From Liolophura sinensis (taxonomy: Eukaryota > Mollusca > Polyplacophora > Chitonida > Chitonidae), in the NCBI RefSeq assembly GCF_032854445.1, contig NC_088295.1, forward strand, positions 57,889,249 through 57,953,248: a stretch of 64,000 nt of DNA, written 5' to 3'. Positions 1 to 62,530 of this stretch are shown piece after piece; position 1 is the stretch's first letter; every line of letters starts with the position of its first letter. The position numbers and the translations under genes are program-made. The notes beneath the pieces were generated by a model, which worked only from the letters and a program-made list of their open reading frames with translations, was not told where the DNA came from and made no database searches.

Positions 1-533
1 CGATGTCCCAAATCTTCAACTGGCTCTGCCTGGTTTGGTACACAAAACCTACCTTCCTATGATCTGCCATTCACACTGTGTGACAGATATCATTTACTTT
101 CAAGATGGCACTAGTATTTAAAAAATTTATATAGTCCATGTAGATTTTGAAATTCTGACATTCGCTGTAACACCATCCCTGTCTCTCAAAAACACTAGCC
201 ACAGACTTCCAAATTGCTAGCTCGATACTGATCTCAATGAGGCCCGCACTAATGGCAACCAAGACTTCACTAAAAACACAAGTTCTTTATTATGTATTTC
301 TGGGTTGTATACAGAAAATTGAAGTGCTTACACCAATGGATATGAATTGTTTTCTGGAGGATTTCTATGCCACAAGTAGGTCTTGTGACATTTCAAAGTG
401 GCTGTTTGTGGCATGTCGCTCAGTTCTGCATGTAGCATTCAGTTGTGGCCATAAGGCAGCGAAAAATGACATAAAAGCGAGGAAAATAATTTGTAATGTT
501 TGCATGTAAATTACATTTTTTCATTGTACTGAC
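1..533. other. no gene seen
   Basis: Short open frames only, none with a recognisable domain or paired splice sites. It probably lies in the intron upstream of the ZMYM/QRICH1-like exons that begin at 897, because the exon at 897 needs an upstream partner outside this window. Confidence 0.5.
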
Positions 534-728
534 CTCGGGCAGGGCGGCTTACTTGCCTTCGGTAAGTCGTCTCAGTGAAGCAGCACTAAATAAAAGAGCG
601 GTGGAAATCTGTCCTGCAACAAGGAGGCACATTACACGTACATGCACCCTAATGATTCCTTCGTCGTCATATGACTGAAAAATTGTTGAGTACGACATTA
701 AACCCCAAGCACTCACTCACTCACTCAC
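534..728 (+). repeat. 5'-truncated SINE, family B
   Basis: The copy ends in a run of ACTC units and is flanked by the 13-bp direct repeat TCATTGTACTGAC (521-533 and 729-741). Its body matches the element at 20818-21143 almost base for base. A truncated 5' end with a target-site duplication is the mark of LINE-driven retrotransposition. Confidence 0.85.
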
Positions 729-780
729 TCATTGTACTGACAGTACCACATGGTATTAAGTTTTACTGTTATTAGTTTTT

Positions 781-842
781 TGGCAACCTGCACATGGTCG
801 TGGGTTTCCCGTGGGCTGTGCCCGGTTTCCTCCCACCATAAT
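781..842 (+). repeat. SINE family A fragment
   Basis: Internal fragment (hallmark GGTCGTGGGTTTCCC) of the tRNA-derived SINE that recurs across the window. It lies in the putative intron just upstream of the first visible coding exon. Confidence 0.7.
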
Positions 843-17100: not shown

Positions 17101-19831
17101 ATGATTTCGCTGAAAAATTATGACTTTCCTCATCCATCACATGACAATGTCAAGTTTAAACCTTCTGAGTAACAAAATACAGGATTTACAAAATTTTAGT
17201 GAAAACGGCAGATTTTTGTGAAAATGGTTCAAACTGATAGGGATCGATTCAACAAACCTTTTGTACAGGAGTGACCATCATCAATGCCATTTACACCGCT
17301 GTGTACAAGTGAAGTCTTGTGGCTGTAGAACTCGTTCATGCTTATCTGCCCTTTACACACAGCTCTCTCCAGGTTCAGCTCGTACTGTTTCTTGTAGTTG
17401 TTTTTGTTGTCCATTCCAAACTGGGCCTAAAATGACAAAATTCTCAACTGAATCTGAATGTTTCGAGCCAACTGAAGGAGCATCAGGGAACGCTTGTTGA
17501 AGCTAAAGCTTTAACTTGAGTCAATATTTGTAGTCTGAATACAGGTTGACCTAAATGTATGTATATCCAATAATTTAGACAATAGATATGATCGACAACT
17601 GTACCAAACTAAAACATCAAGAAATCGTTTCTCTAATAAACGGGGACCATTTCAAAATTTCATGTAGCAATGTTTCACTAGTTTCCTTGCTAGTCACATC
17701 ACATAACAAAGCTTTGGGCCTACAAATGAAAACAAGCTACACTTTGTGATGGACAGAGTTCACTATATCTGTTATAATTTATATGACAGTGTTATTACCT
17801 GAAGCTTTTCAAACTGTTTCTGCTCATCCAACTGTTCAGACTGCTCTTTTTCAGCTATATCTTTTGCTAGTATTTCATCCATCAGCTCCCTGTTTACTAA
17901 GTCAGCTGCCATGGCTGCATCTCCTGTCAGCTGATTGGCTAATTCCTTGGCCTGTATCTGACAAGCAACATCTCTATCTGTATATAACAAATGAAAATGG
18001 TTACATGTATACTTATGCTCGAAAATCATGTCTCCATACATGCCATAAGGCCATCCTTAAAAATTCTTTCTAGGGGCTAAAACGACCAAATCAGTTTGTA
18101 TGGTTTCCTTTTATTGTTATCCTGGCTAATGAAACAAATGGGTAATTTAAAGAAATTAAAATGGAGAGAAAAACAAAAAAAAAGAAACTTTTATCGAGAT
18201 CGACCCCAAAAATTACAGTCTGTAGAGCTCTTTTTAGTGGGTTGGTTGCGTTACACATAACAAAACAAACCAATTTGACTATGGGTGTACATTTCTGAGA
18301 GCAAAAAACTATATTAGTAAGCCAAACAATAAATGCACTATGTTCATGCGCCAATTGAAAATTAAAGGAAAGTCCACAACTACATGTACACCCTAATATA
18401 CATGGAGTATAATACACTGATTCAACAAAAATGTTCCACAATTGTTTCATACAAATTAAAAAGTTGTACATTTCATAATTTGTTGCAAACAAATAAAAAT
18501 CTGTTAAAATTGTTTCATACAGATGAAAATGTCATAGAACTGTTTTACTCACACATAAAAAAAAAAAAACTTAAATAAGGAAAGGCAGGACAAACTATTT
18601 ATGTAAACCATAGTAGACCTGGCTTACATGTTTTACCTTCTGACGACCCAGGAATCTGTTCAGAAGAAAAATGACCTTCCACATGCGCTGTCATGGTGAC
18701 AGGGTCCGGTATATGAACATTACAGACAGGGCACAGTGTATCATCATCCATGGCACAACTCGTCGTAGCTTCAGCAAGGACTGAGTCTGATTCACTAGCA
18801 GGGACATCAGGACTAAGAACATCTGAATGTTTCGAGTTGACGTGGAGTTCGAGAGACAAACTTGAATCCAAGTGCATGTTACATATGGGGCACTCAAAGT
18901 CCAGATGACTTGTACTAGGGATAGGTTCACCTTCTGGGACGATCTCCATGAACTGGTCACTGTCGGCACTCGCTCCATTCTCCATCTGACTGAACCCAGG
19001 ACCCTCCATACTGCCACTGCCACTGGGTTTGGCAGGACTTAATACGTCCAAGTGAGACACATTGACATGCCGCTGAATTTCAGCTTCTGACGATGTGGTG
19101 AATTTGCATAGTGGGCAGTGGAAATCAGATCCTGAACTGGTAGAGCTTGATGTATCACCAGTGGGTTTGGGGGGCGAGTTTTTGCTGCAGGGGGAAACGT
19201 CTAGAGAAAGCCGTGCCCTTTTACTGGCTAGGGAAGACATCTTGTTTTGGGGAAGTTGACTGTCTGGGTTGGACATCACATGAACAACAGGAAGTTTGTA
19301 CATCTTCTCCCCCGTCTCTGCATTAATAAATTCTGTCCTTTCAAGGACTGACGACTCCGCCATCACTGTATCAGACAGGTCGTGTGCCACTACATTCTGA
19401 CCCGAATCCCATTCACAGTCAGATCTCCTATGGACAACGGGCATCACCTGCCCTTTACTACCTGAAAATAATTTACCCCCGTCTTTAGTTATGTCTACTA
19501 AACTCTTATTAAAATATTCCAAATTTACATACGGGGCCTTTTTCCCCTTTTTAAAACTAGACTTATCACGTGAACTAGAAGAATCTGATCGAGGGTTATC
19601 GGCCTCGCCGTCGCTGCTTTGTCTCTTGTTCGGACTCAGGAGTTCAAGATGTTCCATGTACATATGGTCTTCAATTTCTTCCACAGAACCCCCATGGATG
19701 TCACAGAAGGGGCAGCACACAGACGCCTCCACGTGTTCCAACAGTACATGTGTCCTCATCTCCTGCTCACTCAGCCCATCCTGACCACATATTACACAGT
19801 TAAAACAGGATGGAATTCCGCCCTCAGCCAT
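14141..19831 (-). CDS. ZUP1: ZUP1/ZUFSP, K63-specific deubiquitinase (C78 family)
   Basis: Seven coding exons join in phase: 19831-18637, 17977-17799, 17426-17258, 16558-16367, 15257-15089, 14683-14556 and 14385-14141. They encode 758 residues, longer than human ZUP1 (578). The start was chosen at the perfect GCCATGG context. An AG acceptor about 55 nt upstream suggests a 5' UTR exon. Five C2H2-like fingers have their cysteines at 12/15, 40/43, 239/242, 314/317 and 367/370. Residues 399-458 form an acidic helical stretch where the family carries ubiquitin-binding helices. The C78 peptidase domain has Cys554 in GDKGWGCGYRN, His679 in QHQGHSRTIVG and Asp700 in LLFDPS. The His-Asp spacing of 21 equals the human one. 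The known family role is cleaving long K63-linked ubiquitin chains in nuclear genome maintenance. It appears complete and functional. Confidence 0.96.
15352..15519 (+). repeat. SINE family A, 5'-truncated, in a ZUP1 intron
   Basis: Forward copy from CAGCCGTATGAGGG through CAACCTGCAGACGG to the TTCTTGAGTACGG end and an AATAAATAAACA tail. It lies in the intron between the 16558-16367 and 15257-15089 exons, antisense to the gene. Confidence 0.85.
16782..17012 (-). repeat. SINE family B, in a ZUP1 intron
   Basis: Reverse copy starting with the GAGTGAGTGAGTG tail complement and running to AAGTCCTAGGCGTG. It matches most of the 20818-21143 element. Confidence 0.85.
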
Positions 19832-20483
19832 GGCTTGGATTGACGCAAGACGATTGATGGTCAGGGGCACCTTTTGGATTCAGCCTGAAAATAAGAAAAA
19901 GGAGACTCAGACTGTGTGCTTTGCAGAGAAATATCTAGAGCCCTTTTAGTTCTGGAAAACATTTGGACTCTCAAACTAACCAAGCTACATTAAAACTAAC
20001 AAGTATACTGAACAAGAATAAAATGACAGTTTCTCAATAAAAAGATAACTTTTCATACAAATTTCTTTCATTCACAGATTTACAGACCTCAGAAAGCATC
20101 ACTTTGAATTGCGTTTTATAAAATTTCTGCATGTTCACAAGGTTTGGGATGAGAACCTTACAGTTTTTTGAGGATATGACCCTTCTTTGCCTGTGTTACA
20201 CGTCTGAACACAGTACCTTGAGTTGGGTATATATATTCTCCTGAAACTTATTTATTTCATTGGTGTTTAACAGCAAGTCCAAATGCTTTTCACTTATATG
20301 TTGGCAATCAGGTATATGGGAGGGAAAAAATAGGAATGGCCAAAGTAAACACTGCCCTTCACCAGGTATATGAAAAAACTCTAATCTGTATATCTGTAAA
20401 TCTTTAACCACTGAAGCGCTTTCTCCAATGGAATTTATGCATACAGCTGATATGAAAATGATTCTAACGATTTGTGTGTGTCA
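19832..20483. other. ZUP1 5' flank; SINE relic
   Basis: AG acceptor near 19886 (- strand) implies a non-coding ZUP1 exon further upstream. A worn family A relic lies near 20245-20330 (TTTATTTCATTGGTGTTTAA). No gene otherwise. Confidence 0.5.
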
Positions 20484-21834: not shown

Positions 21835-22096
21835 CAGCTACGGGGACGGCAGTAGACAGCTGTCTGCATCCTGCTACGGGGACGGCAGTAGACAGCTGTC
21901 TGCATCCTGCTACGGGGACGGCAGTAGACAGCTGTCTGCAACCTGCTACGGGGACGGCAGTAGACAGCTGTCTGCATCCTGCTACGGGGACGGCAGTAGA
22001 CAGCTGTCTGCATCCTGCTACGGGGACGGCAGTAGACAGCTGTCTGCATCCTGCTACGGGGACGGCAGTAGACAGCTGTCTGCAACCTGCTACTTG
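21835..22096. repeat. 36-bp minisatellite, seven nearly identical copies
   Basis: Each unit carries TACGGGGACGGCAGTAGA and the palindrome GACAGCTGTC. The only clear variation is CATC versus CAACC. The unit is a multiple of three, so frames stay open on both strands (a 12-residue repeat, for example YGDGSRQLSASC). The near identity points to recent expansion. Confidence 0.93.
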
Positions 22097-36585: not shown

Positions 36586-36667
36586 GGTAGCGTGGCCGAG
36601 CGGTCTAAGGCGCTGGTTTTAGGCACCAGTCTCTCAGGAGGCGTGGGTTCGAATCCCACCGCTGCCA
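36586..36667 (+). tRNA. tRNA-Leu(UAG): tRNA-Leu(UAG)
   Basis: Acceptor arms GGTAGCG and CGCTGCC pair (one G-U) with discriminator A. The D arm is GCCGAGCGGTCTAAGGC. The anticodon stem CTGGT/ACCAG closes a 7-base loop with TAG at 36620-36622. A long variable arm (TCTCTCAGGAGG), expected for Leu, precedes the T arm GTGGGTTCGAATCCCAC. A T run at 36672-36680 is a good Pol III terminator. No intron. Confidence 0.96.
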
Positions 36668-39421: not shown

Positions 39422-42040
39422 TTAAGCTTTCTTTTTTGACCGTAATCGATGAAAGATGGCCTTAACGTATTTCTGTACGTCTTCGTCATGTGGACAATTC
39501 AGTTTCGCACAGGTGGTCGCTTCTAAGACTGAAGGCTCTGACAACCATTTGTGATATTTGGGGTCGGCGGCAAGTCTGGATAAAATATGGCATCCATATG
39601 CCTGAGTCCTGCTGTGGTACGGACGAGCAACAAGTGCCTTTGCAATGGCAGCGACGCCGCCATTTTGGATGATGATATCTTGGCACTCTGTATTTTTCGA
39701 TAAAAGAGCCAATAGTATAAGCACGTTATGCTGAAGGACAGGACGATCTGACAGATCATCCAGTGCAGAAATAGCCACAGTAATGCCGCCATTTTTGATC
39801 AACTCTTGGTACAAAGAGTTCTCGCAAATTCTCGCTAAGGCGAGATAACCGTACTCTTGCGTGGCTGCGTGTTCATCGTGGCACGTGATAGCTCTCAACA
39901 CTGCTTCCATTGCATTTTGATTTGCAACCACTGGATCACTGTCATCGCTGGGTTCCTCTTTGTTGATCCAAATTTCCGCAAGACATCTACAAGCGTTCGC
40001 TTGCACTCCTCGGTGGTCAAAGTGACGAACCATGGCCTTCGTTAGATCTCGGACCAGTTGTCGCTTGTCTATGACAGACGAATAGTCACTGGATTGGCAC
40101 AGAATCGCAAAAAATTGACAAGCAGCTTCCTGCACACCTTCATTGTCTTCATGTTCAGACATCATGTTCAATACCGTTTGAATTCCGTCCTTTTTTATGT
40201 CTGAGACGGGACTGTTGGCATGTCCTGCCATCTGAGATAGTGCAAGACAGGCGTTGCGTTGAAGTGCGCTATGACATGGATTACTTTTCATTGCGGAGAT
40301 AACAACAGTAACCTCTTCCTGTATCCCTGCGCTCGCCTCTCTCGTGTTCTCCAAAAGCCGCGCCAACGCTAGGCAGCCATTTTGCTGAACTGGTACATGG
40401 TCTATATGCCTCTTCATGGTTTCTACAACAAGTTCTCTCCATCCATCTTGTATCAAAATATCATTACTATTTCCATCCATAAATAATCGAGCCATTAACA
40501 GAAGTCCTTTTTCTGTCACAGAGGGGTTGTCCGAATGAACATGAAGCCCTTCAAGGGCTTTCGTCAAACCATCAGCCGACACAACAACAACAATACGGTT
40601 TTCCTCGCTCAGTGACAATATGGCCAACACGTGACAAAGAACTTCATAAATGCCACTGTCGCTTAGATTAGCTCTAAGAGCAAGAACGGACGATTGTACT
40701 AAACCTTGTTTCCCTGCAAGATGCCTGTTGAGGTCATTGTGCAGGAGGGGAGGTAAAAGTGAGTTTCCTAGAAGCTGAATTTCTGGGTTGTGAACATGTT
40801 CTTTCAAAACTGATGCTATTGTCTCGATGACTTCTTTTCCTATGGCTTCGATTCTGAAATCACTGACACACAGAATTTGCAGCGTGGAACATCCCTGGAT
40901 CTGAAGAGTGCTGTCACTGACATGGCCTTTCATAATACGGAGTGTAAGCTCCACGAGGCTTTGTCTGTTTTGCTTGTGCAACTCGAGATCTCCGTTTGTA
41001 AGACTGTGACACAAAATCTGAAAGGCCGTCACATATAGGTAAACCTCTTTGTCCAGCGGCAGTGTTTTCAAAGTCGGCACAAACCTATCCCACTGCCCTT
41101 TGCTAGAGTAATCTTCAAGACGTCTAAGGAAGAATTCCTCGGATCCCAGATCAAAGACAGCTCCTGGAAAATCAATCAGTCCAATCTCCGGAGTGACTTC
41201 TTGTAATTCCACAATCTTGACTCCCTGTCCGGCGTTGTAGACGTTCAGTACCTTCATCTGCAGTCCCGGTGGTATGATCACTTCGGCTACGTCAGGCACA
41301 AGATTGACCCTAAAACCACGGGTCGTGTTCAGGTTGAATAATGTCTTAGTCCCAAATTTACCAAGAACCTTTGCACCCGTGACAACCGGAAGTTTTTCCG
41401 TATAACTGCTGAACCCCCACCATGTTAACCGCGTATCCTCCTTGTACCGTGACGTCTCGTCCTCTCGCGTGCCACACCAGATGCTGCCCTGGTATGCCGG
41501 AAGTTTGTACAGCGCCGTCAAAAAGAGTTTCAACAAAGGGAGACAAGGCATCAGAGATTGTCTATCAGAGCAGCGCAGTTTGCTATTGAATAAGTGATAC
41601 AGGGACTTTTCTTCATGGAGATCTTCCCATGGCCACGTGCATATCAAGAGAACGCAAAGATCGTCCTCTGCGATTCCTTCGGGAACATTGGACAGTCGGG
41701 TGATATATTGGGCTGCCTGTTCGACGATGAGATCGATGTTAGGAACCAAATCCGTCAGAGGTTCTACTGCCTCTTTGAGGGACACTTCTGGAGTGCTGAA
41801 CAGCCCTCGGATCACTGGAATGTCCGTGGACAAGGGTTCTCTGACCACATCCTTCAGTCTGTTGACAAAAGTCTTACAGGCCACGTTATAATCCGCCTTG
41901 GTATACCAGAATCCAATATGTTCTATGACGTTGTCTTCGTCGTCCTGAAACTCCATAGTCGCTGGATAGTAGGTAAAAGATCCGATTACGTCAGGGACGG
42001 AATAGTACCAAAGAGTCCCCAAAATCTTGAATAGAAACAT
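39422..42040 (-). CDS. ADP-ribosyltransferase-like domain fused to armadillo-type repeats
   Basis: One intronless frame of 872 codons. An alternative start at Met29 (41956) has the better context ACTATGG. Residues about 100-290 resemble the animal ART (PF01129-type) fold. The motifs in order are LPAYQGSIWCG (180-190), TWWGFSSYT (206-214), GTKTLFNL (230-237) and DVAEVIIPPG (250-259). In active arginine-specific members these positions read YRG, an S-x-S motif and ExE. Here the arginine is Gln184 and the first acidic residue is Val251, while Ser211/212 and Glu253 remain. It may therefore be inactive or changed in specificity. Residues about 345-868 hold some ten or more helical repeats of roughly 42-45 residues (for example VQQNGCLALARLLE, LQRNACLALSQMAG) typical of armadillo folds. 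No signal peptide or membrane segment is evident, so a cytosolic or nuclear site is likely. Function unknown. Confidence 0.85.
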   Translation of the reverse strand: MFLFKILGTLWYYSVPDVIGSFTYYPATMEFQDDEDNVIEHIGFWYTKADYNVACKTFVNRLKDVVREPLSTDIPVIRGLFSTPEVSLKEAVEPLTDLVPNIDLIVEQAAQYITRLSNVPEGIAEDDLCVLLICTWPWEDLHEEKSLYHLFNSKLRCSDRQSLMPCLPLLKLFLTALYKLPAYQGSIWCGTREDETSRYKEDTRLTWWGFSSYTEKLPVVTGAKVLGKFGTKTLFNLNTTRGFRVNLVPDVAEVIIPPGLQMKVLNVYNAGQGVKIVELQEVTPEIGLIDFPGAVFDLGSEEFFLRRLEDYSSKGQWDRFVPTLKTLPLDKEVYLYVTAFQILCHSLTNGDLELHKQNRQSLVELTLRIMKGHVSDSTLQIQGCSTLQILCVSDFRIEAIGKEVIETIASVLKEHVHNPEIQLLGNSLLPPLLHNDLNRHLAGKQGLVQSSVLALRANLSDSGIYEVLCHVLAILSLSEENRIVVVVSADGLTKALEGLHVHSDNPSVTEKGLLLMARLFMDGNSNDILIQDGWRELVVETMKRHIDHVPVQQNGCLALARLLENTREASAGIQEEVTVVISAMKSNPCHSALQRNACLALSQMAGHANSPVSDIKKDGIQTVLNMMSEHEDNEGVQEAACQFFAILCQSSDYSSVIDKRQLVRDLTKAMVRHFDHRGVQANACRCLAEIWINKEEPSDDSDPVVANQNAMEAVLRAITCHDEHAATQEYGYLALARICENSLYQELIKNGGITVAISALDDLSDRPVLQHNVLILLALLSKNTECQDIIIQNGGVAAIAKALVARPYHSRTQAYGCHILSRLAADPKYHKWLSEPSVLEATTCAKLNCPHDEDVQKYVKAIFHRLRSKKKA

Positions 42041-46071: not shown

Positions 46072-46622
<551 letters not shown>

Positions 46623-46653
46623 ATCTCACGGAATACCTCCAATCGCTTCCAAC

Positions 46654-46669
46654 GGCCCTTTTCAGGGCC
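46654..46669 (+). terminator. histone 3' stem-loop (H3 copy 1)
   Basis: GGCCCTTTTCAGGGCC: a 6-bp stem and 4-nt loop, bound by SLBP in animals. A purine-rich downstream element CGAAAGAATC follows. Confidence 0.93.
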
Positions 46670-47355
46670 AACCAAAACCTCGAAAGAATCTTTTTATCTA
46701 AGCACATTTTTACACTTTTTCCTCATATACTTTTGATAATAGGGATATATTAACTATCGTTTTGTGATGTGCGCAGCTTTCCTCACACAATAATAGTGTC
46801 TGAATATAACTGAGTATTTAATTAACCTGATCATTATCAAATATCATTAGACATATTATTTACTGCACCTTAAAATGGCTTGTTCTAAAATACGGCACAT
46901 TTCATATAAAATGAAATTTATTTTAAAAAGTATCTCACTACGGATGACGTCCCTGTTGACACGTGGAATCACGATATAATGGGCTTTCTTCACCCTGTTA
47001 GTTACCCCCCTTTAAAAGAACTCAAGATTGCATTTTTCCGTTCATCATGGAACTATATATAGAAATCAGTCAGATTTATTACAAGAAAACCAATTATATC
47101 ATGTTCTCTACTCTATATGAACATAAATACACAGTTCATACGTGTGTACCATTAACATATAGCTAAGTAACCAATCTCACCCGACATGACTTGCACACGT
47201 ACCTGTGTGATTCCATTTTGCTGTTATAGTGTAAACCTCCGTATACGAATCAAATTCCAAATCTCCAAATGCTATTAAAAATACACAAATAAGCTATAAA
47301 TTTACTAGACAAGCTGGGAAACCAAGCTGTAAACATTGATGATTTAAGTTAGTAA

Positions 47356-47460
47356 ATCATTTATTTATTTGATTGGTGTTTTAAGCCGTGGCCATGAACA
47401 TTTCACTTATACGATGGGGCCAGCGCTATGAAGGGAATAAATCCACCATAGGTTGCTAAA
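47356..47460 (-). repeat. SINE family A relic shared with 53757
   Basis: TTTATTTGATTGGTGTTTTA, CATTTCACTTATACGATGG and AATCCACCATAGGTTGCT. The paralogous position in unit 2 carries the same relic, so it was inserted before the block duplicated. Confidence 0.75.
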
Positions 47461-48302
47461 CAAACAATTATAACATGTTTTAGTACGAGCCAGACATGTA
47501 ATTACACTTGGTATTTACGATGTCTGTAATTGAGAAATGCCTCTGAAAAACCTGGGCATAGATATTCAGTACAGCATATTGATTTTTATGTAGATAAAAC
47601 GTATCCCACCACAAATGGCATAGGTGACTAAATGTCTGTCTATATATGGAGATTACGATGTGCATCTTCGCTAAACTTTATTTTGATATTTTGGTGAAAA
47701 GACAGAACAAGTGAACTGAGCGTGGGATACTTGAAAAAGCGCGGCAATGATATCACAGTTCTTCTCGTTAAGCGGAAAAGGAAAAAATCCACAAAAAAGA
47801 ACCCAAATTGCCTTAGATCTGCTTTATCAAAAAATTATTTTACCGCCTCGGTCATTTAAAGGCCAATTTACACCATCGTCACTCATAGGCAGGTTTTCCC
47901 ACCAAGACTATTGAGTTTGGACAAACTGTCCTTTGTTCAGTTGGTTCTTTATTCAGTTCACCAGAGCGCGATGGTCTAATTATACCGGGATCACATGTGC
48001 GCTCAGCACTAAGCCACGTCAGACAGGATTTTCTTCTTTTGTTGCTACTCTCTAAACTCGAAGAAAGCAGCGAGTTATGTAATCTATCAGAGCAAAAGCC
48101 AGCCTTAATTATTCGCCAGGGGAGAGGGTGTTAATGAAGGATTGTCAAAAGTAGTCATCACTCATACAATGACGCAGTTGAGAACTTAGATCAGTGGGAG
48201 GCAAGGAAAATGTCACCAAAAATCACAATAGATTTCAACTACGAATTTGTTTTTATAAAAACCGCGAAATTTCGTCACCCGGTTGACATACACTACTTAA
48301 AT

Positions 48303-48357
48303 AGGCGGTCGTGTAAGTAAAATATTCTTAATTACGGCGTACACCACCAATCAAATT
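48303..48357 (+). repeat. SINE family A 3' end
   Basis: GCGGTCGTGTAAGTAAAATA, TTCTTAATTACGGCG and CACCACCAATCAAAT in order. Confidence 0.65.
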
Positions 48358-49914
48358 TCATCACATACATAGGAAAGAAAATATATGATTAGTTATATAC
48401 TGCTTAAGACTCATAGTTGTACGTGCGTTCAATGATAATAATAAAGTCAAGGCATCACCACGCAAATGTAGAAGGCTTCTGAGTTGTTATTGGTGAACTT
48501 TACCCATAATATCGTCGTCGTCTTCACTCCCAGTCACTCCACCACCACCTACCACTTGTGCCTTACGTACATAATATGAAAGCTTTCCCAAAGAACCGCA
48601 ACACATTTTGACTATTCAAACAAGCCGAGGAGTGACTGTTTAGTCATTACATGACTTAGCAAATTTAGACCTCACCATATATCCCTCTAAAACAACTTTT
48701 TGGCGGACTTTATCATGGCTTATGGGCGTTTTGTCCGTTTTTAATGTAAGGAATGGACTTTTTGTCCTATGGTATGATGACTGGGCTTTTTGTCGGATGT
48801 AACTCTCATCTCACACCCATATATATAGTTGTAACGAAAACAGGAAACAAAAATAATTCCATACAAAAGCCGATATATATTTGTCCGTTTATTTCTATCC
48901 ACTTATATATTTATGCAGGTTATGTTTTATTGTACAGTTGGACTGGGATAAAATCTATGTCAGTGAAACACCAACCAAATTCCTTCACATGCATAGAAAA
49001 GAAAATATATTCAGAGTTGTTATTGGTGACCTTTGCCAATAATATCGTCGTCGTCCTCACTCTCCGTCACTCCACCACCTCCTTGTGCTAAACGTACACA
49101 ATGTGAAAGCTTTCCCTAAGAACTGTAACACATTTTGACTATACAAACAAACCGATAAGTAACTCTATTCATTCATTACATGGTTTAGCAAGTTTAAACC
49201 TATCTTTCTAAAACTTTTTGGTGGACTTAATTCTGTTATGTGGGTGTTTTGTCCCTTTTCGATGTAAGGAATGGATATAGTCTATCAGAAAAGAAATATA
49301 ATTCCAAACAAAAACCAATATATATGTGTCCGTTTATTTCAGACCGCTTATATATTTATGCAAGTTATGTTTTATTGCACAATTAGAATTGGATAAAATC
49401 TATGTCAGTAAAAGGAAAAAAGTTGTGAAGTTTAAAATTTTACTGAGAATGAGCGATGATGATAGTTAAGCACTTGTTAAAGAGCGTTGGTACATAAAAC
49501 AACATGTGAAGCGCGATCCACTTATCCCAACCACAAGTGACTTGTTTGGCGGGAAGTTACCACTGAGTACAGCGTCACAGGCAGAGGAAAATCATTGCAA
49601 GAACTGCAGAATCTACCACTAAAGATAATAGAAATGGCATCTTTGAATAACTTACAATCTTAGGATATCGTAACTAAGCGTAAAATAACTCTATGAATTT
49701 GTCTTTTGCGTGCAAAATACAAATATTTGCCAGATAGGAGACATTAGAATGCAACACTAGCTAAATATATTTCATCTTATCGCACAACATCCTTCGCGAA
49801 TTTTTTTGAAACGCGAAATATACATTAATAAAGAACATGAACATATATCCAATGTAAAATTCCATGTATAACAATATAAATGTCAGTGATATTTCTATTG
49901 AAATAAGAGCAAAG

Positions 49915-49976
49915 AAACACAAACTTCGCTTGATGATCAAAATCGCCGGGCAGGTGCTTTCGACGCGGTCCGCGCT
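49915..49976 (+). promoter_or_regulatory. H1 promoter (copy 1)
   Basis: The H1-specific box AAACACA lies at 49915-49921. A 23-bp block from GTGCTTTCGACGCGG to CCGCGCT (49954-49976) is shared with the other H1 with one difference. Confidence 0.7.
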
Positions 49977-50068
49977 AGGCCTTGAAAAGCAGCTGGTCAG
50001 CAAACTACAGGCATTCGCACTCCAGCAGCCAGACTGACTTTACCTGGACAATTACCTGGATATTCATC

Positions 50069-50643
50069 ATGACTGACACAGCTCCAGCTCCCGTCGTGCA
50101 GAAAGTGAAAAAGGCCACCAAGCCCAAGAAACCAGCCGAGCACCCGAAATACAGCGAGATGTGTCAGCCGCTCTCAAGGACCTGAAAAGAGAGAGGGGGA
50201 TCCTCAAGGGGCAAGATTTTTGAAGTACATCATGGCGAATTACAAGGTTGGAGACGAGAAGACCGTCAACACACACCTGAAGCTTGCCCTGAAAAGTGGC
50301 GTCCAGTCCGGTATGTTGAAACAGACTAAGGGTACCGGTGCTACAGGATCATTCAAACTTGGAGAAACCGCCAAGAAAGCCCCGCCAAGCCAAGAAACCG
50401 GCCGTCAAGAAACCAGCAGCCAAAAGACAGCCACTAAGAAGACGAAATCACCGAAGAAAGTCACAAAGAAACCAGCTGCCAAGAAACTCAAATCTCCGGC
50501 CAAAAAACTCACCAAGAAGACAAAAATCTCCGAAGAAGGTGGCGAAGAAACCGGCGTCTAAGAAACCAACCAAATCTCCAAAGAAACCAGCAGCCAAGAA
50601 ACCAGCCACTAAAAAGCCAGCAGCCAAGAAAACGAAGGCCTAA
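50069..50643 (+). pseudogene. H1: histone H1, frame broken
   Basis: Aligns from start to stop with the intact H1 at 59352, but carries several frame-shifting indels. The first, near 50160 (GAGATGTGTCAGCC against GAGATGGTGATAGCC), ends the frame after about 38 codons. Others lie at GAAAAG (50186), around 50205, and in the lysine-rich tail (CCCCGCCAAG near 50383, CAAAAATC near 50522). Most fall in short homopolymers. The globular domain and SPKK-rich tail are recognisable across the frames. It is either a decaying copy or a consensus error of the assembly. Confidence 0.85.
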
Positions 50644-50665
50644 ACAAAATGATTTTCTTTCCAAC

Positions 50666-50682
50666 GGCCCCTTTTCAGGGCC
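50666..50682 (+). terminator. histone stem-loop with an extra base (H1 copy 1)
   Basis: GGCCCCTTTTCAGGGCC has one C more than the standard 16-nt element, which disturbs stem symmetry. A CCGAAAGAGA downstream element is present. Confidence 0.8.
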
Positions 50683-50699
50683 AACCATAACTCCCGAAA

Positions 50700-52362
50700 G
50701 AGATTTTTCTGTCTAAGCACATCGTTAAATGGGTGTTAAATGCCCTGCAATATCAGAGGTAAGAAAAATGCCGAAACAGTCAGAAATCATCACTTTTATA
50801 CATAAAAATATTTTGAGCCAATTCATCAAGACAACGAAGCGAAGAAAAAAAATTCTAACTTCTCTGTCAAATGTATAGTGAGTTTTCACCAAACTTAAAA
50901 TGACTAACGTAAGGACTGCTCGGATAAGGCAACTGCGTAGCCAATACAACTGTCATATGCTGAAGACAACGTTCACGTGTATGTACAAATTACTAGTCAT
51001 CGTGTTAGTATTAATTTTAGTGAAAAAAACAACGTAATGCGTTATTCAGGGGAGATATTGAAAACATTTTTGTGCAAAGACCTGAGACGATATTTAGTAC
51101 AACTAGATATATCACTTTAGTGAAGACAATGAGAACCGTCACCGGAATACAAATCTTAACCGGCCCGTTAACCTTGACAGGTGCCATAAGTATATAACCT
51201 TAACCTTGTAAAAGCGTGATTGGTAAATGTTTATACTGATGAATAAAAGAGTAGATTTATTCGCTTTAACTAAACGCCACAATGAAAAGATAAGTAATCC
51301 GTCCCCCGGTCGGATGTTACGTTGCAATAGGTCATTAAGGAAAGTATCACAAAACCCTGGTTTCCTTTCAAGTATATAGTACTATATACGGGTTGTATCA
51401 GTGCGTTTTATGATGCTGGAAACTGGTCTTACATGCAGGTACCTGTAAAATAGAAAATTTAGGTATGATATGGATGTACGCAATATTCATTACACCAACG
51501 CTGTCATCTCAAGTAACTGTACATAAGGGCACGTCTTTTCACAAAGCTGCGTGCGACATTTTGTACGTCACTATGCCGTACCATTGTCCTATATTTCCCG
51601 AAAATGTCAATTAACAGAATTATAAAGTGAAATTCCTCACTGTCTGTCCGACGAGATAACATGCAAATAAGGCAGCGTAAAGATTCCGACTATGCAACGT
51701 TCGTTCGTGGATTGCACTTGTAAACACTACGAGAAACTGAAAGCGAATTCTAAGTCTAGTAAACCAGATACGATCTTCCTTTTTATCGATAATGTTTGAT
51801 AAGGTATTTGTAATTCGAACGATCTGTTACAACAGAACTGAAGCTACATGGTAGGCCGCATGATTACAAAACAATACCGTGTCTGACACTTCCAGATCGC
51901 TGAACACCTCCCGCGTCAAGGCAAAAAGGGGAGGTGACTGACTCAAAATACCAGGGTGTCTGTAAAATACAATGACTTAAGGGAGTTTATGGTTGAAGGG
52001 AAAGTTTGGATAAAACTGAACAGCCAATCGTTCACTCAGAGTCAGATACATGTCAGTACACACCTGGAAATCTCAGGTTTATGAAGATGACATCTAAAAT
52101 AACAATATATTTTTCTCCCTTAGCGTTATGTCCCTTTAATCTATCTATACTTCCTGGTTTTAATGATATATTTATAGCCATACACTAACACCAAATGGAA
52201 GTTTCAACGAATGTTACAATGATCGAGGTGTTGTTACTGAACCACGCGTTTTTCTTATGTTGAAGCGATGGATGCTGCTAGAGAAGCATGTAGATAAAAT
52301 ACTAAAGTAGTTCATAATTTGCAATGTAAAAATTTTTGGGTCACCGGTTGTACAAAAACTGA
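50700..52362. other. histone spacer
   Basis: No gene seen. The part up to about 51190 is paralogous to 55171-55500. A MITE-like inverted end lies near 51526. Confidence 0.55.
51526..51600. mobile_element. possible palindromic MITE fragment
   Basis: GGGCACGTCTTTTCACAAAGC and GTGCGACATTTTGTACG resemble the left half of the elements at 9089 and 36862. The right end is not clear. Confidence 0.4.
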
Positions 52363-52507
52363 CCAATCGGTGAGTTACGTTTTAACCAATCAGGGTTCAG
52401 GGATTTCCACCAGTCGGAGAGAGGCCTCGTCCAATGGCAGAGGGACACAAGAGGGCCAAGACAGGCTTAAAAGCCCATGTATTGAACACCTTGGTCACAC
52501 TTGATCC
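52363..52507 (+). promoter_or_regulatory. H3 promoter (copy 2)
   Basis: CCAAT boxes at 52363-52367, 52386-52390 and 52431-52435, CTTAAAAG at 52466-52473, and TTGATCC at 52501-52507. The layout is the same as in copy 1. Confidence 0.65.
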
Positions 52508-52524
52508 ATTCTAGCAGGAGAGAC

Positions 52525-55500
<2,976 letters not shown>

Positions 55501-55825
55501 AGAGCGCCAGTTGTAGAGAATAGGGGTATAAACCGCCTTCGGGTGGGGCAAGGATGTGTTGCACATTGCACTACAATGAAGATTGTCTCTTCCCATCTTA
55601 CATCCACAACAGCACCACTTGTCATTTGGTGTTATTCACGGCAGTCCGAATAAGCACAATGTATTCTCAGCTGGCAAATGAGAGGTTTTTTTTCTTCTGA
55701 AAGGTGCAACAGGTACAAGAGATGTATGTTTATAAGTTTGTCTGGTATTTCAATATTGTGGATATATAAATTAATTTATTAACGATCCAACACATTGTCA
55801 TCAATAAGAATTGAACTTATTCGTT

Positions 55826-55911
55826 AAACAGTTACATTTTATAAAAAAAATCATGTAAATAAATTTTAAAAACAGTTACATTTTATAAAAAAATCATGTA
55901 AATAAATTTTA
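55826..55911. repeat. 43-bp tandem duplication
   Basis: Two adjacent copies of AACAGTTACATTTTATAAAA followed by ATCATGTAAATAAATTTT. Confidence 0.85.
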
Positions 55912-57423
55912 TATGTTAAAAATATAAATAATTATACCGAATAGCCACTTATATATGTTCAGTAACATAAAATAATTACTTAGCATTAAGTCGTTATTTA
56001 GTTGGCATAAAGTGTTGAAGTATAGACTTACATTACTATAGCTGCAGGACATTTAAGACTCGTCCTAGCCTTGTATCGCCAAGGTTATTAGACATGACTC
56101 TGGCATGGTGAGCCCTTTTTAAACTATAGGTAACAGTTAATTAATCTTCTTATTGGATCATTGATAATAGAGATATTTTGATTTAATTTCTTTAGTGAAA
56201 TACAGATGAAAAATCAGTAGACAGTAAGTATGGGTGTTTGCATGGCGGTTACAACTTTCCGGTGACATACATCATTAAGCATTTGTTGAGACGCTCCCTG
56301 CCCCCCCCCCCCCATAGACACACACTCAAATTTATGTAAACAAAATGATTTGCAAACTTTAACACAAAATAAAAATTAAATCCTTCAAGGTAGCAGAAAA
56401 TCATAAATTGCCAATTTCATTTGATAAGCTGTTTTCATATTCGGACCTGGCCATTGATATGTGGAAACTTGCCTTTCAGATTTGAAAGCCTTGAGTATAG
56501 TATTGCGTGCTTTTTACGGGGATCTGTGCCACCGGGATGTAAGAAAATGTTGAGTTTGTAGAAGAAAGTGGGCTAGATTCTATTTTGTACTTTTCATTGT
56601 GCCAATCATGAACCGGTATCAATAAAGTGCCATGTTATCTCAACAACAACTTCACACAGTTCAGCTACCTGAGCAATGTTCCTGGGTATCTGAGTTCTTA
56701 GAGTGGCAGAATGTTGTATTGGTTTTGGGGAGGGGGGGGGGGGGGGGGGGTAGATCAATTCATGGAGTGCCACTGTTTATTCCACCCGGATGCATTCTAA
56801 GCGCTTTCACACTTGGATGTAACACCTACCAATGTGACCCGTGATGTCATTTAGAATTCCACCACCGCCACCCACACTTCACCACCCCGACATTAATTCA
56901 CATTCTTGTTTGAGTCAGTGAAAACCGGTTACCCAAGCAAGTGTCTAATACATTTAGAAACTCACGCTTCAAATATTTATAACAGAACATACAGTTGTCA
57001 TATCTCGGACAACGGTTTGTGGCAATAACATAATCTATTCTGCTGTAAATCAGATTCTGTTAGGTGAATAAGTTTGTATTTACAGATCACATATACATAA
57101 CACCAGTGTCAAAACCATGCATCATGGCCAAGAAACACAAGTCACTACCATTTTCCAAAGTGTTCTTCACATGAAGGTATAAATCAGAACTTGGAAACGA
57201 TTTATACCTCCACAGTTTCACGCACGATATACCAATATCTATACTCAACAAAAATATAAACACACGAGGCAATTTAATATTGTTTTCTCTCAGTACTGAA
57301 TAGCTCAACAAATGGGGTAAGTAATCATTAATTGTGGCTTCAAGTTCCACCAGAGTTTGGAGCAATAGCCCAGAAGCTATGGCTCCGTGAGAGTGTATGC
57401 CTCCGTATGGAGACATCGGGTGT

Positions 57424-57556
57424 TGAGAATACACCCTGATATGGACTTCTGAGGGAAAGTGTCAGCTCATTGAAAATGGAAGCACTGACAGACTGCATAT
57501 CATACACTGTATGAATTGTGAAAGCCCTTCCTTTTTGTTATAAACCAGCATACATA
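57424..57556 (-). mobile_element. partial copy of the foldback element at 63728
   Basis: GAATACACCCTGATATGGAC, CACTGACAGACTGCAT and AAAGCCCTTCC...AAACCAGCATAC match the reverse complement of one arm plus core of the element at 63728-63985. The second arm is missing. Confidence 0.75.
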
Positions 57557-59189
57557 TAATTCGTTCTACAAGAATGTAATTACTGAAAAAGTTAACAATA
57601 AGTTTTCCGGGGAAGGGACTGGTCGTAAATTTCAATTCTAAAGTGCCTGTAAATGTGACCGGTACGAGTATCAGGTAGTCTTCATCTTCGTAAAACGGAT
57701 CTTAGTCCAATCTAAATCTATCCCTGTAAGATTATGTTACTATTTGGTCTCGTTGTGTACGTTCACCACAATAAAACATTATTTTCCAAGTTCTTTACAA
57801 TAAAAATCTATAGGTATTCCCGGATAAATATGGCTGGAGCCCTTTAATAGCAGAACAAAGAAATAGTGCTTGCTTTTTGGCGCTATAGCCTGGACACAGC
57901 TGCATGTGTGTCTACAGGTCAACTACTGCGAGCTGATAAGTCATCATGTAATGGAGTCGTGGACAGCACCTCCTAGGACAGCATGAGTTGTGGAGTAGGG
58001 GCGGATTTTGGTGTGTATGTTGGAAGGTTGGGGGTGGGGGGTACATTACTCGTCTTGGTGGGCAGTCCAATTCTTCTCACCGTATACTTCTGCGTGCCCT
58101 CCGTTGTATATTCAGAAAAATAGCGCTTGACCGTTCTAAATCTACAAGGGACAAAAACACATACTGTGATATCTTCGGATATGTATATGTTTATATTATA
58201 TCCCAGTTGATTGCGTACAATAACGCGTGTGGAGAGTATTATGGCGCAAACCTGTAGTATGGATGTTATACCTTGAGCGCTTACAATGCATGTACAGGGA
58301 CCACACATTAACTACGTACCATTTCGGTTTTAAAGAGCTTATTCCCTGAGCAGAATATTGTGACACCTGGAGCGTAAATGACACAAGTTTCAGTTTTCAT
58401 TATCACTAAATAAAGTTTGTGACGCAAAATATTATCGACTCTTCCTGTTAAAAAATCCCCTAATTCTGTGAGTAGAACATTGTGACATCCAAAACACGTG
58501 AAATCATATAAGATAATTTTAAGCGTCCATTAGAACAAAATAAATTTTCTGTGGGCAGAATATTGTGACATACAGATGAATGCCTATTTGTATAAAACAA
58601 AAAATAAATATGGACGTGTTCAAATGTTACCATGCACCATCAATGACTGATTAAGCGGACATAGCATGGAGTTTATTAGGTGGATTTTGTGTGAAGTCTA
58701 TCATGTATAACTTTATGGTAATATTTAATAACGTTTTTTACACGGCTGTCACATATGTGATGTCTTAAAACTTCCGCAAAGCGCTTTTACAGCAGAAGAA
58801 GAAAGCCACCGATCAACCTAAATAGACATAACTATGTACATATATTCCTAACCTTGCAGATAGATCTATATCTCTTAACGGTATCTGTATAACATCTAAC
58901 AGTAATTGTTTTCTTGCACAATTATTTTCACTAAGTGGCTGAGGTAAACCCAGGACCACCTGCAGATCTAGTCAATTACTTAGCGGCAAAGGTGGTAAAA
59001 ATGCAACGGTGATTCGCAAGTATAGGCAACCAAACGGTACATTATTCCAAAATTGACAATAACCTATTACCATTATCGTCATGAGACACAAAGTACACAA
59101 TAACCAATAACATACTCTATGACCTGTTCAAATTCTATATAGATTTACAGCTAGCTTAGAGATATATTCTGGTTTAAATTTGCTTCAAG

Positions 59190-59258
59190 AAACACAAATT
59201 ATAGCTGGTACAGTTCACGGCTGGATTTGTCTCGTGTGCTTTCAACGCGGTCCGCGCT
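59190..59258 (+). promoter_or_regulatory. H1 promoter (copy 2)
   Basis: H1 box AAACACA at 59190-59196 and the shared GC-rich block from GTGCTTTCAACGCGG to CCGCGCT at 59236-59258. Both sit at nearly the same distance from the ATG as in copy 1. Confidence 0.72.
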
Positions 59259-59351
59259 CGGGGTATGTACAACGGGCGGCCTAATCCTATCGCCATTCGC
59301 ATGTTTGCTACCAGATAGAACGTACGATCTACTGCATCAAAGCTATTCATC

Positions 59352-59927
59352 ATGACTGACACAGCTCCAGCTCCCGTCGTCCAGAAGGTGAAGAAGGCCA
59401 CCAAACCCAAGAAGCCAGCCGAGCACCCGAAATACAGCGAGATGGTGATAGCCGCTCTCAAGGACCTGAAAGAGAGAGGAGGATCATCCAGGAGCAAGAT
59501 CTTGAAGTACATCGTCACCAACTACAAGGTGGGAGACGAGAAGACCGTCAACACTCACCTGAAGCTTTCCCTGAAAAGTGGCGTCCAGTCCGGTGTGTTG
59601 AAACAGACTAAGGGTACCGGGGCCACGGGATCTTTTAAGCTCGGAGAAGCTGCCAAGAAAGCCCCGGCCAAGCCAAAGAAAACAGCCGTCAAGAAACCTG
59701 CAGCCAAAAAGCCAGCTGCTAAGAAGACAAAATCACCAAAGAAAGTCACAAAGAAACCAGCTGCCAAGAAACTGAAATCTCCGACCAAGAAAGTCACGAA
59801 GAAGACAAAATCTCCGAAGAAGGTGGCGAAGAAACCGGCGTCAAAGAAATCCACCAAATCTCCAAAGAAACCAGCAGCTAAAAAACCAGCAACCAAGAAA
59901 CCAGCAACCAAGAAAACAACTGCTTAA
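59352..59927 (+). CDS. H1: linker histone H1
   Basis: Intronless, 191 residues. A short N-terminal tail (MTDTAPAPVVQKVKKATKPK) leads to the winged-helix globular domain at about 24-98, with HPKYSEMVIAALKDL, GGSSRSKILKYI and GSFKLG. The rest is a lysine-, alanine- and proline-rich tail with several KSPKK motifs, which are phosphorylation and DNA-binding sites in other H1 proteins. It binds linker DNA at the nucleosome entry and exit. It has an H1 box upstream and the histone stem-loop downstream, so it is a replication-dependent gene. It is the only intact H1 in the window. Confidence 0.97.
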   Translation: MTDTAPAPVVQKVKKATKPKKPAEHPKYSEMVIAALKDLKERGGSSRSKILKYIVTNYKVGDEKTVNTHLKLSLKSGVQSGVLKQTKGTGATGSFKLGEAAKKAPAKPKKTAVKKPAAKKPAAKKTKSPKKVTKKPAAKKLKSPTKKVTKKTKSPKKVAKKPASKKSTKSPKKPAAKKPATKKPATKKTTA

Positions 59928-59959
59928 ACAGGCTAATGCTGGTGCAATTCTTATCCAAC

Positions 59960-59975
59960 GGCTCTTTTCAGGGCC
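59960..59975 (+). terminator. histone 3' stem-loop (H1 copy 2)
   Basis: GGCTCTTTTCAGGGCC, 6-bp stem with one G-U pair, followed by CTGAAAGAGATC. Confidence 0.9.
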
Positions 59976-59999
59976 ACCCAAACCTTCTGAAAGAGATCT

Positions 60000-61927
60000 T
60001 TCCGTCTAAGCACGTCATGGTTTGTCTTTCAACATTTAGGACGTTAATAACCAAGGAGCAAACAATATGAATAATAAATAATAACTTGATGCATGTTGCA
60101 TTGTATAACTTGGTCAGCCATTAGTAACAAACCATGTTCATCTTCGTATTAATCGGTTAAACAATGAGGTTAAAGTGTCAATTCAAAGGCCAAAATGTAC
60201 AGTAGTCGGTCAGTGTAATGATGTTCATTTTTTATGAAAACAAAGGAGACAATTTACATGTCCACGTAGGACATTGGAATCAAATAAGTTGTGGAAAACT
60301 ATTCTCTTTTTCCCCCTATTCGCGTCTTTCTTCCGAACAATGTGTTTATCATGTTAGGTGACAACACCTTCCCTCTGTAAATTTCTATTTTCAAAAATTA
60401 TATAGACTACACCACTACATGACAGTACTTCTATGCCTAGACAGACGATATATCTTCAAGTACACTCTGCACTATCTCCATACACGTGTTCTCAGCCCCA
60501 CCCTACTCGCCCAATACCCAAGGGCTCTCTTTCTGTCCCCCAGGCAATGAGTTAATGTATCTATGCCTGACTATGGATGACCGACTACACTAGAAAACCC
60601 CGGCTTCCAACTGTTACTACAATGCTTCCAACTCATGCTGTTCCATTTGCCGTGTTATTAACACAGTGTTTATGTGTATGAGGTCATTTATTAGGATCTA
60701 GGCCCCTTCCTGCCCACGGACGATGGGTTAATATGTCTATGTGTATTACGTCATGTATTAGCATGACTGACTACACCAAACTGAATGGACCGTGACATCC
60801 GAATGTCACAACAATACTTCTATCTCAAGCTGTTCCGTTTGACGTGTGGTATTAACACTCATTTGGTATATGTATGGGATGCCCTTCATTGGGGTGGCCG
60901 AGGAGGTTAGCACGCCAGTGTGACGCAATGACCCAGAAGCACCAATGCGGTCGAGTCCAGTTCATGCTGACTTACTCTCCGGCCGTACGTGGAAAGGTCC
61001 TCAGCAACCTGCGGATGGTCGTGGGTTTCCTCCGGGCTCTGCCCGGTTTCCCCCCACCATAATGTCGGCCGCCGTCGTATAAGTGAAATACTCTTGAGTA
61101 CGGCGTAATACACCAATCAACTAACTAACTAACTAAATAAATAAATTATTCATTGGGATGGCTGATTACACTAAACACAATGGATCGTCACTTGATCCAG
61201 TTGACAAGTGACAATCAGTGGTATCTGTATGGCAATGAGAAATACATATGTAATATCAACACTTAGTGTCCACGGGTCAAGCCCAACATTCGTATAGCAC
61301 TCGTTCGAAGTCGATAATCACGCAATTACAGCTCCTCGTTTAAACAAACTTTCTCCAATACATTTATCAGGTCATCAAAACGATACGGTTAAGATATTGC
61401 TTACGTGGGGCGAAACCCTTGAACGTTCATTTTTGTAATCAGTCAAACAAATTTCGGGGTATTTTAAGTCAATGTAAGTCAAAGACAGATTATTTCACAA
61501 TCATGTATGTCAGCTCCTTCAATCCAGTTTTTTTGCATTTAATGGATGTTGTGAAATGTTTAGTGGTTCCAGAGAATGGAAAGTTCGTAACGCCCGTCAA
61601 TCAGTTGGGTTCATGTTGTGCAAATATTATAGAATGAAAGTAATATGCAAGAATTGTTCAGTATACTGCATCTATATTTATTTGATCGTTGACTAACGAC
61701 TCTCTACTTTCTACTCTATTAAAGCACACAGATAATACTTCCATGTTGGCCATATGGTTTAGGTATTGTGACATTAGATTCTTGAGTGAGGCTGTCATAA
61801 ACTGTCAGGCCATCCTCGCTGTATGCCCAGCTCATTTTTGTCAGTCTCAGCACGAATTAAATGTCAAGCATAACCTCCGTTGAAGGATTCTAATTTTCTT
61901 CACATGCTAAAAGCCCACCTAAACGGA
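60000..61927. other. histone spacer, no gene seen
   Basis: Contains an imperfect duplication: GACTGACTACACCAAACTGAA near 60770 resembles the segment near 60575, and TCAAGCTGTTCCGTTTG near 60825 resembles the one near 60640, with an offset of about 190 bp. A SINE copy follows. Confidence 0.55.
60894..61148 (+). repeat. SINE family A with target-site duplication
   Basis: Flanked by the 9-bp repeat TTCATTGGG (60885-60893 and 61149-61157). The tRNA-like head is partly deleted (GGTGGCCGAGGAGGTTAGCA). The body and 3' end are complete, and the tail is (AACT)n followed by AAATAAATAAAT. Confidence 0.88.

Positions 61928-62530
<603 letters not shown>

What the first reader, a model, noticed from the sequence alone, without database searches (positions are those of the whole stretch)
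39422..42040. ART-like domain fused to armadillo-type repeats, with a broken catalytic motif
The sequence shows ART landmarks (AYQG, WWGFSS, AEVIIPPG) joined to more than 500 residues of helical repeats. The catalytic Arg of YRG is Gln184, and the first Glu of the ExE pair is Val251. From family knowledge, such changes abolish or redirect ADP-ribosyl transfer. The layout recalls SARM1, where an armadillo domain senses NAD metabolites and holds an NAD-consuming domain in check. A similar ARM-controlled NAD sensor, or a pseudoenzyme scaffold, is an inference.
Basis: partly seen in the sequence, partly recalled or inferred. Interest (0 to 1): 0.8.

Follow-up and report, generated by a model that had tools for sequence, protein, structure and literature searches.

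The report
Predicted-inactive ART fused to armadillo repeats
An animal gene appears to join an ADP-ribosyltransferase-like domain that has lost a key active-site arginine to a long armadillo-repeat scaffold, and so looks like a former enzyme now used as a regulator or docking protein.

Summary
The observation largely holds. One open frame (39422-42040, minus strand, 872 codons) encodes an ART-like domain (about residues 56-283) followed by armadillo repeats. The domain alone scores below the PF01129 cut-off, but a paralogue (E 3e-42) passes it, and actinobacterial ARTs match (E 2e-14). That Arg is kept in 84 of 84 bacterial relatives examined (best 80 of 201, plus 4 plasmid records) and in both unfused loci of this subfamily. 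Val251 for the first Glu of ExE is right; the serines 211/212 and Glu253 remain. A second single-frame ART-ARM gene on another contig has His at the Arg position, which supports a real fusion. Best reading: a pseudo-ART (C-S-E, comparable to inactive human ART4, G-S-E) on an ARM scaffold, probably a docking or regulatory protein, perhaps for the intact unfused ART. For a SARM1-like switch only the ARM fold speaks: no TIR or SAM was found, and 0 of 17 long TIR frames read here carry these repeats. A published analogue is LRRC9 (leucine-rich repeats plus pseudo-ART). Expression, activity and partners are untested.

The parts
39422..42040 (-). Open frame of 872 codons, ATG to TAA; probable coding start at the ATG whose first base is 41956 (844 aa)
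   Evidence: frame; acceptor-like site, ATG context
42026..42037 (-). Splice-acceptor-like TTTCTATTCAAG; suggests a 5' (non-coding) exon further upstream. Acceptor-like sites, judged by eye, also precede the frames of the contig 11 and contig 10 relatives
   Evidence: sequence; inference
41192..41875 (-). ART-like domain with its N-terminal helices, residues about 56-283
   Evidence: homology; profiles of alignments that include it, against solved ARTs; model
41474..41476 (-). Codon 189, Cys, at the catalytic arginine position of W-R-G
41405..41410 (-). Ser211-Ser212, the kept serine motif
41288..41290 (-). Codon 251, Val, at the first Glu of ExE
41282..41284 (-). Codon 253, Glu, the kept catalytic glutamate of ExE
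39437..41008 (-). Armadillo-repeat solenoid, residues about 345-868; repeat-profile hits at 469-826

Best explanation
The gene encodes a pseudo-ADP-ribosyltransferase. A domain of the R-S-E (PF01129-like) ART group, with actinobacterial ARTs among its relatives, is joined to a long armadillo solenoid. It has lost the arginine that grips NAD and the first glutamate of ExE, and should not transfer ADP-ribose to arginine. It is most likely kept as a folded docking module: the ARM solenoid binds a partner or target, and the dead ART head binds or competes with an active ART (for example the intact unfused paralogue on contig 9), as inactive human ARTC3 binds ARTC1. Shown here: homology, the same domain order at two loci, residue states, open frame. 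Inferred: inactivity, docking role, the partner.
For: The W-R-G arginine is Cys189 here and His in the second fusion, but Arg in 84 of 84 bacterial relatives and in both unfused loci of this subfamily. Of 43 columns invariant in the 84 bacteria and the intact paralogue, 28 are kept, among them W188, W207, G209, S211, S212, F235, E253, P258, G259. The frame is open although substitution drift to 80% identity would put 3-22 stops into it and to 61% 9-32 (100 simulations each). The predicted model (mean pLDDT 73.8, pTM 0.72) places 189, 211/212 and 253 in strands (model 154-163, 183-186, 225-228; residue number minus 28), roughly as Arg, Ser and Glu lie in strands 1, 2 and 5 of known ARTCs (PMC10928986, passages; in the model they are the first, third and fifth listed strands). 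In CteC, R65 of R-S-E contacts adenine and diphosphate and R65A has no activity (PMC10810742, passages). Human ART4, listed as G-S-E (PMC7955679, passages), showed no auto-ADP-ribosylation; inactive ARTC3 forms a heterodimer with ARTC1 and stabilises it (PMC10928986, passages).
Against: No expression, no orthologue from another species and no binding data were available. The kept S-S and Glu253 leave some NAD chemistry possible. Besides 189 and 251, 13 further columns of the 43 changed, among them G202, P200, C213 and F248, so the head is not changed at the active site alone. The model was built with ART relatives in the alignment and was not compared with solved structures (fold search never accepted a job). 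The ART-ARM linker is not alike between the two fusions beyond chance (312 of 1000 shuffles as high), so one ancient, selected fusion is not shown. Loss of the Arg is not confined to fusions: an unfused PF01129 locus of another type (L003) reads K after the W, by eye. The loss could be recent in this copy.
Confidence: 0.55

Rival explanations
1. ARM-gated NAD-metabolite sensor working like SARM1: the ARM solenoid binds NAD or NMN and controls the ART head or a partner.
For: ARM solenoid joined to an NAD-handling fold; in the mollusc Aplysia 10 TIR proteins of unknown function carry ARM-type folds besides 3 SARMs (PMC9334734, passages).
Against: No TIR or SAM hit; ARM half nearest to ARM-only and ART-ARM frames in this genome; 0 of 17 long TIR frames read carry the repeats (frames chosen for length, spliced genes not seen); a dead head has nothing to gate. 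The ARM metabolite pocket was not examined.
Confidence: 0.1
2. Active enzyme of changed chemistry: Glu253 and the serines still bind NAD and the domain hydrolyses NAD or modifies a non-arginine target.
For: S211, S212 and E253 kept. The paper on LRRC9 warns that apparent pseudo-ARTs may keep or regain activity (PMC7955679, passages).
Against: The arginine is the same in 84 of 84 bacterial relatives examined; R65A of CteC has no activity; ART4, G-S-E, showed none; the second fusion lost Arg, the second Ser and both Glu.
Confidence: 0.15
3. A gene on the way out: the ART head is a decaying leftover on an ARM protein that alone has the function.
For: Only 28 of 43 core columns kept, 20 of 43 in the second fusion; long branches for both fusions in the tree.
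Against: Open frame across the whole head; motif serines, catalytic Glu, the tryptophans, PG and F235 kept.
Confidence: 0.15
4. Two separate genes or an assembly artefact.
For: No transcript was seen; the linker is not conserved.
Against: One open frame; the same domain order in one open frame of 1117 codons on another contig, aligned collinearly over window residues 150-826.
Confidence: 0.03

Closest known systems
LRRC9 ART-like family (PMC7955679, passages seen)
   Same: A probable pseudo-ART joined to a repeat solenoid; found in animals, Mollusca named among the phyla
   Different: Leucine-rich repeats flank the ART, and it is compared there with PARP domains. Here the repeats are armadillo, on the C-terminal side, and the ART is of the R-S-E group
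Vertebrate ARTC3/ART3 and ARTC4/ART4 (PMC10928986, PMC7955679, passages seen)
   Same: R-S-E group (PF01129) with lost catalytic residues; ART4 (G-S-E) lost the same arginine
   Different: No ARM solenoid named in the passages seen; listed there as membrane, GPI-anchored or extracellular proteins
Actinobacterial ART proteins (L025-L108)
   Same: Closest ART sequences found outside this genome: 30-32% identical for the 4 plasmid records, 31-35% for the 21 loci aligned; they share the N-terminal helical part
   Different: W-R-G, SS and E-x-E intact in 84 of 84; in L025 the partner domains are macro and uracil-DNA-glycosylase-like
SARM1 (layout recalled; named in PMC9334734 passages)
   Same: ARM solenoid joined to an NAD-related domain
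   Different: TIR and SAM domains, not found here
TASOR and PARP13 pseudo-PARPs (PMC7532188, abstract and section 13 seen)
   Same: ART-superfamily domain that lost catalysis; in TASOR needed for targeted H3K9me3 deposition
   Different: PARP (H-Y-E) type, not the R-S-E group

Membership tests
R-S-E ART family (PF01129) | Profile score at or above the curated cut-off | tested here: not met
   15.3 bits against 22.3; its nearest paralogue 33.4 bits
R-S-E ART family (PF01129) | Homology to accepted members | tested here: met
   E 3e-42 to the unfused paralogue, which passes the cut-off; E 2e-14 to actinobacterial ARTs, of which the two scanned pass PF01129
R-S-E ART family (PF01129) | Catalytic Arg in strand 1 | tested here: not met
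   Cys189; Arg in 84 of 84 bacterial relatives examined
R-S-E ART family (PF01129) | Ser of strand 2 | tested here: met
   S211, S212
R-S-E ART family (PF01129) | E-x-E of arginine-specific members | tested here: not met
   V251-A252-E253: first Glu lost, catalytic Glu kept
R-S-E ART family (PF01129) | ART fold | tested here: inconclusive
   Model with pTM 0.72 and strands at the motif positions, built with ART relatives in the alignment; comparison with solved structures never ran (15 fold search tries, all busy)
Armadillo-repeat proteins | Tandem helical repeats of about 42 residues | tested here: met
   (by sequence; no ARM model)
SARM1 | TIR and SAM domains beside the ARM | tested here: not met
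   No such Pfam hit at E up to 1; an unseen upstream exon is possible
SARM1 | NAD/NMN pocket in the ARM | not tested
   No ARM model obtained
LRRC9 family | ART-like domain between LRR domains | tested here: not met
   No LRR in the Pfam scan

The most novel reading that the evidence does not exclude
ART-ARM proteins are a small animal class in which the ART head lost its NAD-gripping arginine upon or after fusion, and the ARM-borne dead head controls the intact unfused ART of the same genome: a built-in regulator of an ADP-ribosylation response, parallel to ARM-TIR proteins.
Probability: 0.15. Interest if true: 0.7.

Novelty: new variant of a known kind. Interest (0 to 1): 0.45.

Why it matters
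A predicted pseudo-ART on a repeat scaffold has been described before (LRRC9). An ART-ARM version in the R-S-E group, present twice beside an intact unfused relative in one genome, gives a natural pair (intact and dead) with which to ask how a lost ADP-ribosyltransferase becomes a regulator. It also corrects which residue is broken.

Tried and rejected
Gln184 as the lost Arg: rejected, the column is variable. SARM1-like ARM-TIR kinship: of 117 TIR matches 18 regions were fetched, picked mostly for long frames; 17 held the long frame (matched by length to the listing), and 0 of 17 hit the ARM repeat profile; the one printed in full (L119) reads as an LRR-transmembrane-TIR receptor. Spliced genes would be missed. 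One ancestral fusion: collinear alignment, but linker similarity within chance and ART tree order unresolved; left open. Viral contigs: four scans, no relatives. First prokaryote-genome scan with the four animal sequences: none confirmed; the second, with the intact paralogue and four actinobacterial sequences, gave 201 relatives, best 80 kept. Its patterns covered WWG and the ExE region, so conservation there is partly selected for; W-R-G was in no pattern. Window protein against solved structures by sequence: five designed or engineered repeat proteins, all in the ARM part; ART part alone: none at E up to 10; the profile of four animal sequences found Vis (E 9e-6), that of eight also rat ART2 (E 0.004). 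NCBIfam: only ARM-part matches far below their cut-offs (38 bits against 2000 or more), none for the unfused paralogue. First two attempts at a repeat profile failed through my patterns, redone. Literature: no paper on an ART-ARM fusion in the listings (two returned no papers); subscription journals are mostly not held. PMC8195603 (passages) gave nothing on this fusion.

For this I lowered the novel case from 0.17 to 0.15.

Full report
What is there. The frame at 39422-42040 on the minus strand is open for 872 codons; 20 shuffles of the window gave at most 189. The window lies at contig C1:57889249-57953248 of an unnamed 609 Mb genome. The first ATG is probably not the start: a splice-acceptor-like TTTCTATTCAAG falls at 42037-42026, the ATG at 41956 has the better context, and acceptor-like sequences, judged by eye, also stand just upstream of the frames on contigs 11 and 10. 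So the coding part is likely one exon of 844 codons with an upstream exon; no transcripts were available.

ART half. Pfam alone is weak: PF01129, E 0.013, 15.3 bits against 22.3 for residues 1-282, and no hit in the whole-protein scan. Relatives settle it. In the same genome residues 59-292 match an unfused ART frame on contig 9 (C9a, 262 codons, 37%, E 3e-42), which passes PF01129 (33.4 bits). Against plasmid records, residues from 56 or 58 to 282 or 283 match four actinobacterial proteins (30-32%, E 2e-14 to 8e-11); the two scanned pass PF01129. A scan of prokaryote genomes found 201 relatives, of which the best 80 were kept, all actinobacterial by title. Profiles of alignments that include the window reach solved ARTs: Vis (E 9e-6; 1.1e-6) and rat ART2 (E 0.004). 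The window ART part alone finds none.

Which residue is broken. Aligned with 84 bacterial relatives (80 of 201, plus 4 plasmid records), the columns of W188, R189, G190, S211, S212, E251 and E253 are the same in 84 of 84; the window has W188, C189, G190, S211, S212, V251, E253. In the Vis alignment the YRG falls in the W-R-G column, and the KYKG before it where the window has AYQG. The scan's patterns covered WWG and the ExE region, so conservation there is partly selected for; W-R-G was in no pattern.

Other loci here. C9a keeps R, SS and E-S-E. C9b (L008), about 44 kb from it, keeps W-R-G, has G-S and P-H-E, and its N-terminal part reads in another frame, so it may be a broken copy. Contig 11 carries a second ART-ARM fusion in one frame of 1117 codons with H, S-K and F-P-H. 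So both fused heads lost the arginine and both unfused loci of this subfamily kept it: 2 and 2, too few to test. Outside the subfamily an unfused PF01129 locus (L003) reads K after the W, by eye, so the loss is not confined to fusions. The four animal ARTs group together (99/98 in a tree of 21 rows) but their order is unresolved and all four were flagged for long branches. The two fusions align collinearly over window 150-826 (20.7%, E 9e-24), yet the linker alone scores no better than chance (312 of 1000 shuffles). One fusion or two is open.

ARM half. LRRK2-type and zer-1-type ARM profiles match (E 1.3e-15 and 9e-12). A repeat profile of 17 units, from the ARM-only frame on contig 10 and a frame on contig 1, finds nine repeats at 469-826 (127 bits; best of 200 shuffles 7.4). 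The nearest relative is the contig 10 frame (27.8%, E 2e-44), which shows no ART in its scan.

Structure. AlphaFold2 on residues 29-330 with 21 bacterial rows: mean pLDDT 73.8, pTM 0.72; residues 189, 211/212 and 253 lie in strands (model 161, 183/184, 225). The ART relatives in the alignment inform this model, and no comparison with solved structures could be run (15 tries, all busy), so it supports but does not prove the fold. No model of the ARM half was obtained.

Function. In R-S-E enzymes the arginine holds NAD: CteC R65 contacts adenine and diphosphate and R65A has no activity (PMC10810742, passages). Human ARTC3 and ARTC4, which lack the motif, showed no auto-ADP-ribosylation, and ARTC3 forms a heterodimer with ARTC1 and stabilises it (PMC10928986, passages); ART4 is listed as G-S-E (PMC7955679, passages). 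By that comparison the window head, C-S-E with V-A-E, is expected to be inactive. Of 43 columns invariant in the bacteria and C9a it keeps 28; the 15 lost are 189, 251 and 13 others, 9 of them mild changes. The frame is open where drift to 80% identity would give 3-22 stops and to 61% 9-32 (substitutions only). A kept, non-catalytic role is therefore the best reading, with decay of the head as a live rival. That it docks on an active ART is a model taken from ARTC3-ARTC1, not shown here.

SARM1. The comparison rests on the ARM fold. ARM-type folds in TIR proteins are reported in Aplysia (PMC9334734, passages), so ARM plus an NAD-related domain is a layout at least one mollusc uses, but here 0 of 17 long TIR frames read (of 117 matches) carry these repeats, and the window protein shows no TIR or SAM.

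Novelty. The closest published thing I saw is LRRC9, a predicted pseudo-ART among leucine-rich repeats. An ART-ARM fusion was not found in the listings. I rate it a new variant of a known kind.

Noticed in passing
window 46200-62530 (+): Histone cluster: H3 at 46200-46622 (8 residues shorter in the middle than the copy at 62081), H1-like at 50109-50561, H3 at 52486-52839 with its frame changed partway, H1 at 59319-59927, H3 at 62081-62530 (named by eye); two histone stem-loops at 46649 and 52961.
   Followed up: partly
window 18599-19870 (-): 423-codon frame with C2H2-type zinc-finger matches.
   Followed up: partly
window 21837-22093: 36-base minisatellite, 7 copies at 98%, open in several frames on both strands.
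   Followed up: no
window 36586-36667 (+): tRNA gene by Rfam.
   Followed up: no
L025 800-3205: A Streptomyces plasmid protein joins a macro domain, a uracil-DNA-glycosylase-like part and a C-terminal ART in one chain.
   Followed up: partly
G000, 117 TIR_2 matches; L119-L136: Many TIR matches in long single frames; the one printed in full (L119) reads as an LRR-transmembrane-TIR receptor, which suggests a large Toll-like receptor set.
   Followed up: partly
L001, L003, L004: Three further PF01129 loci of another type on contigs 6 and 2; in L003 the position after W reads K instead of R.
   Followed up: no
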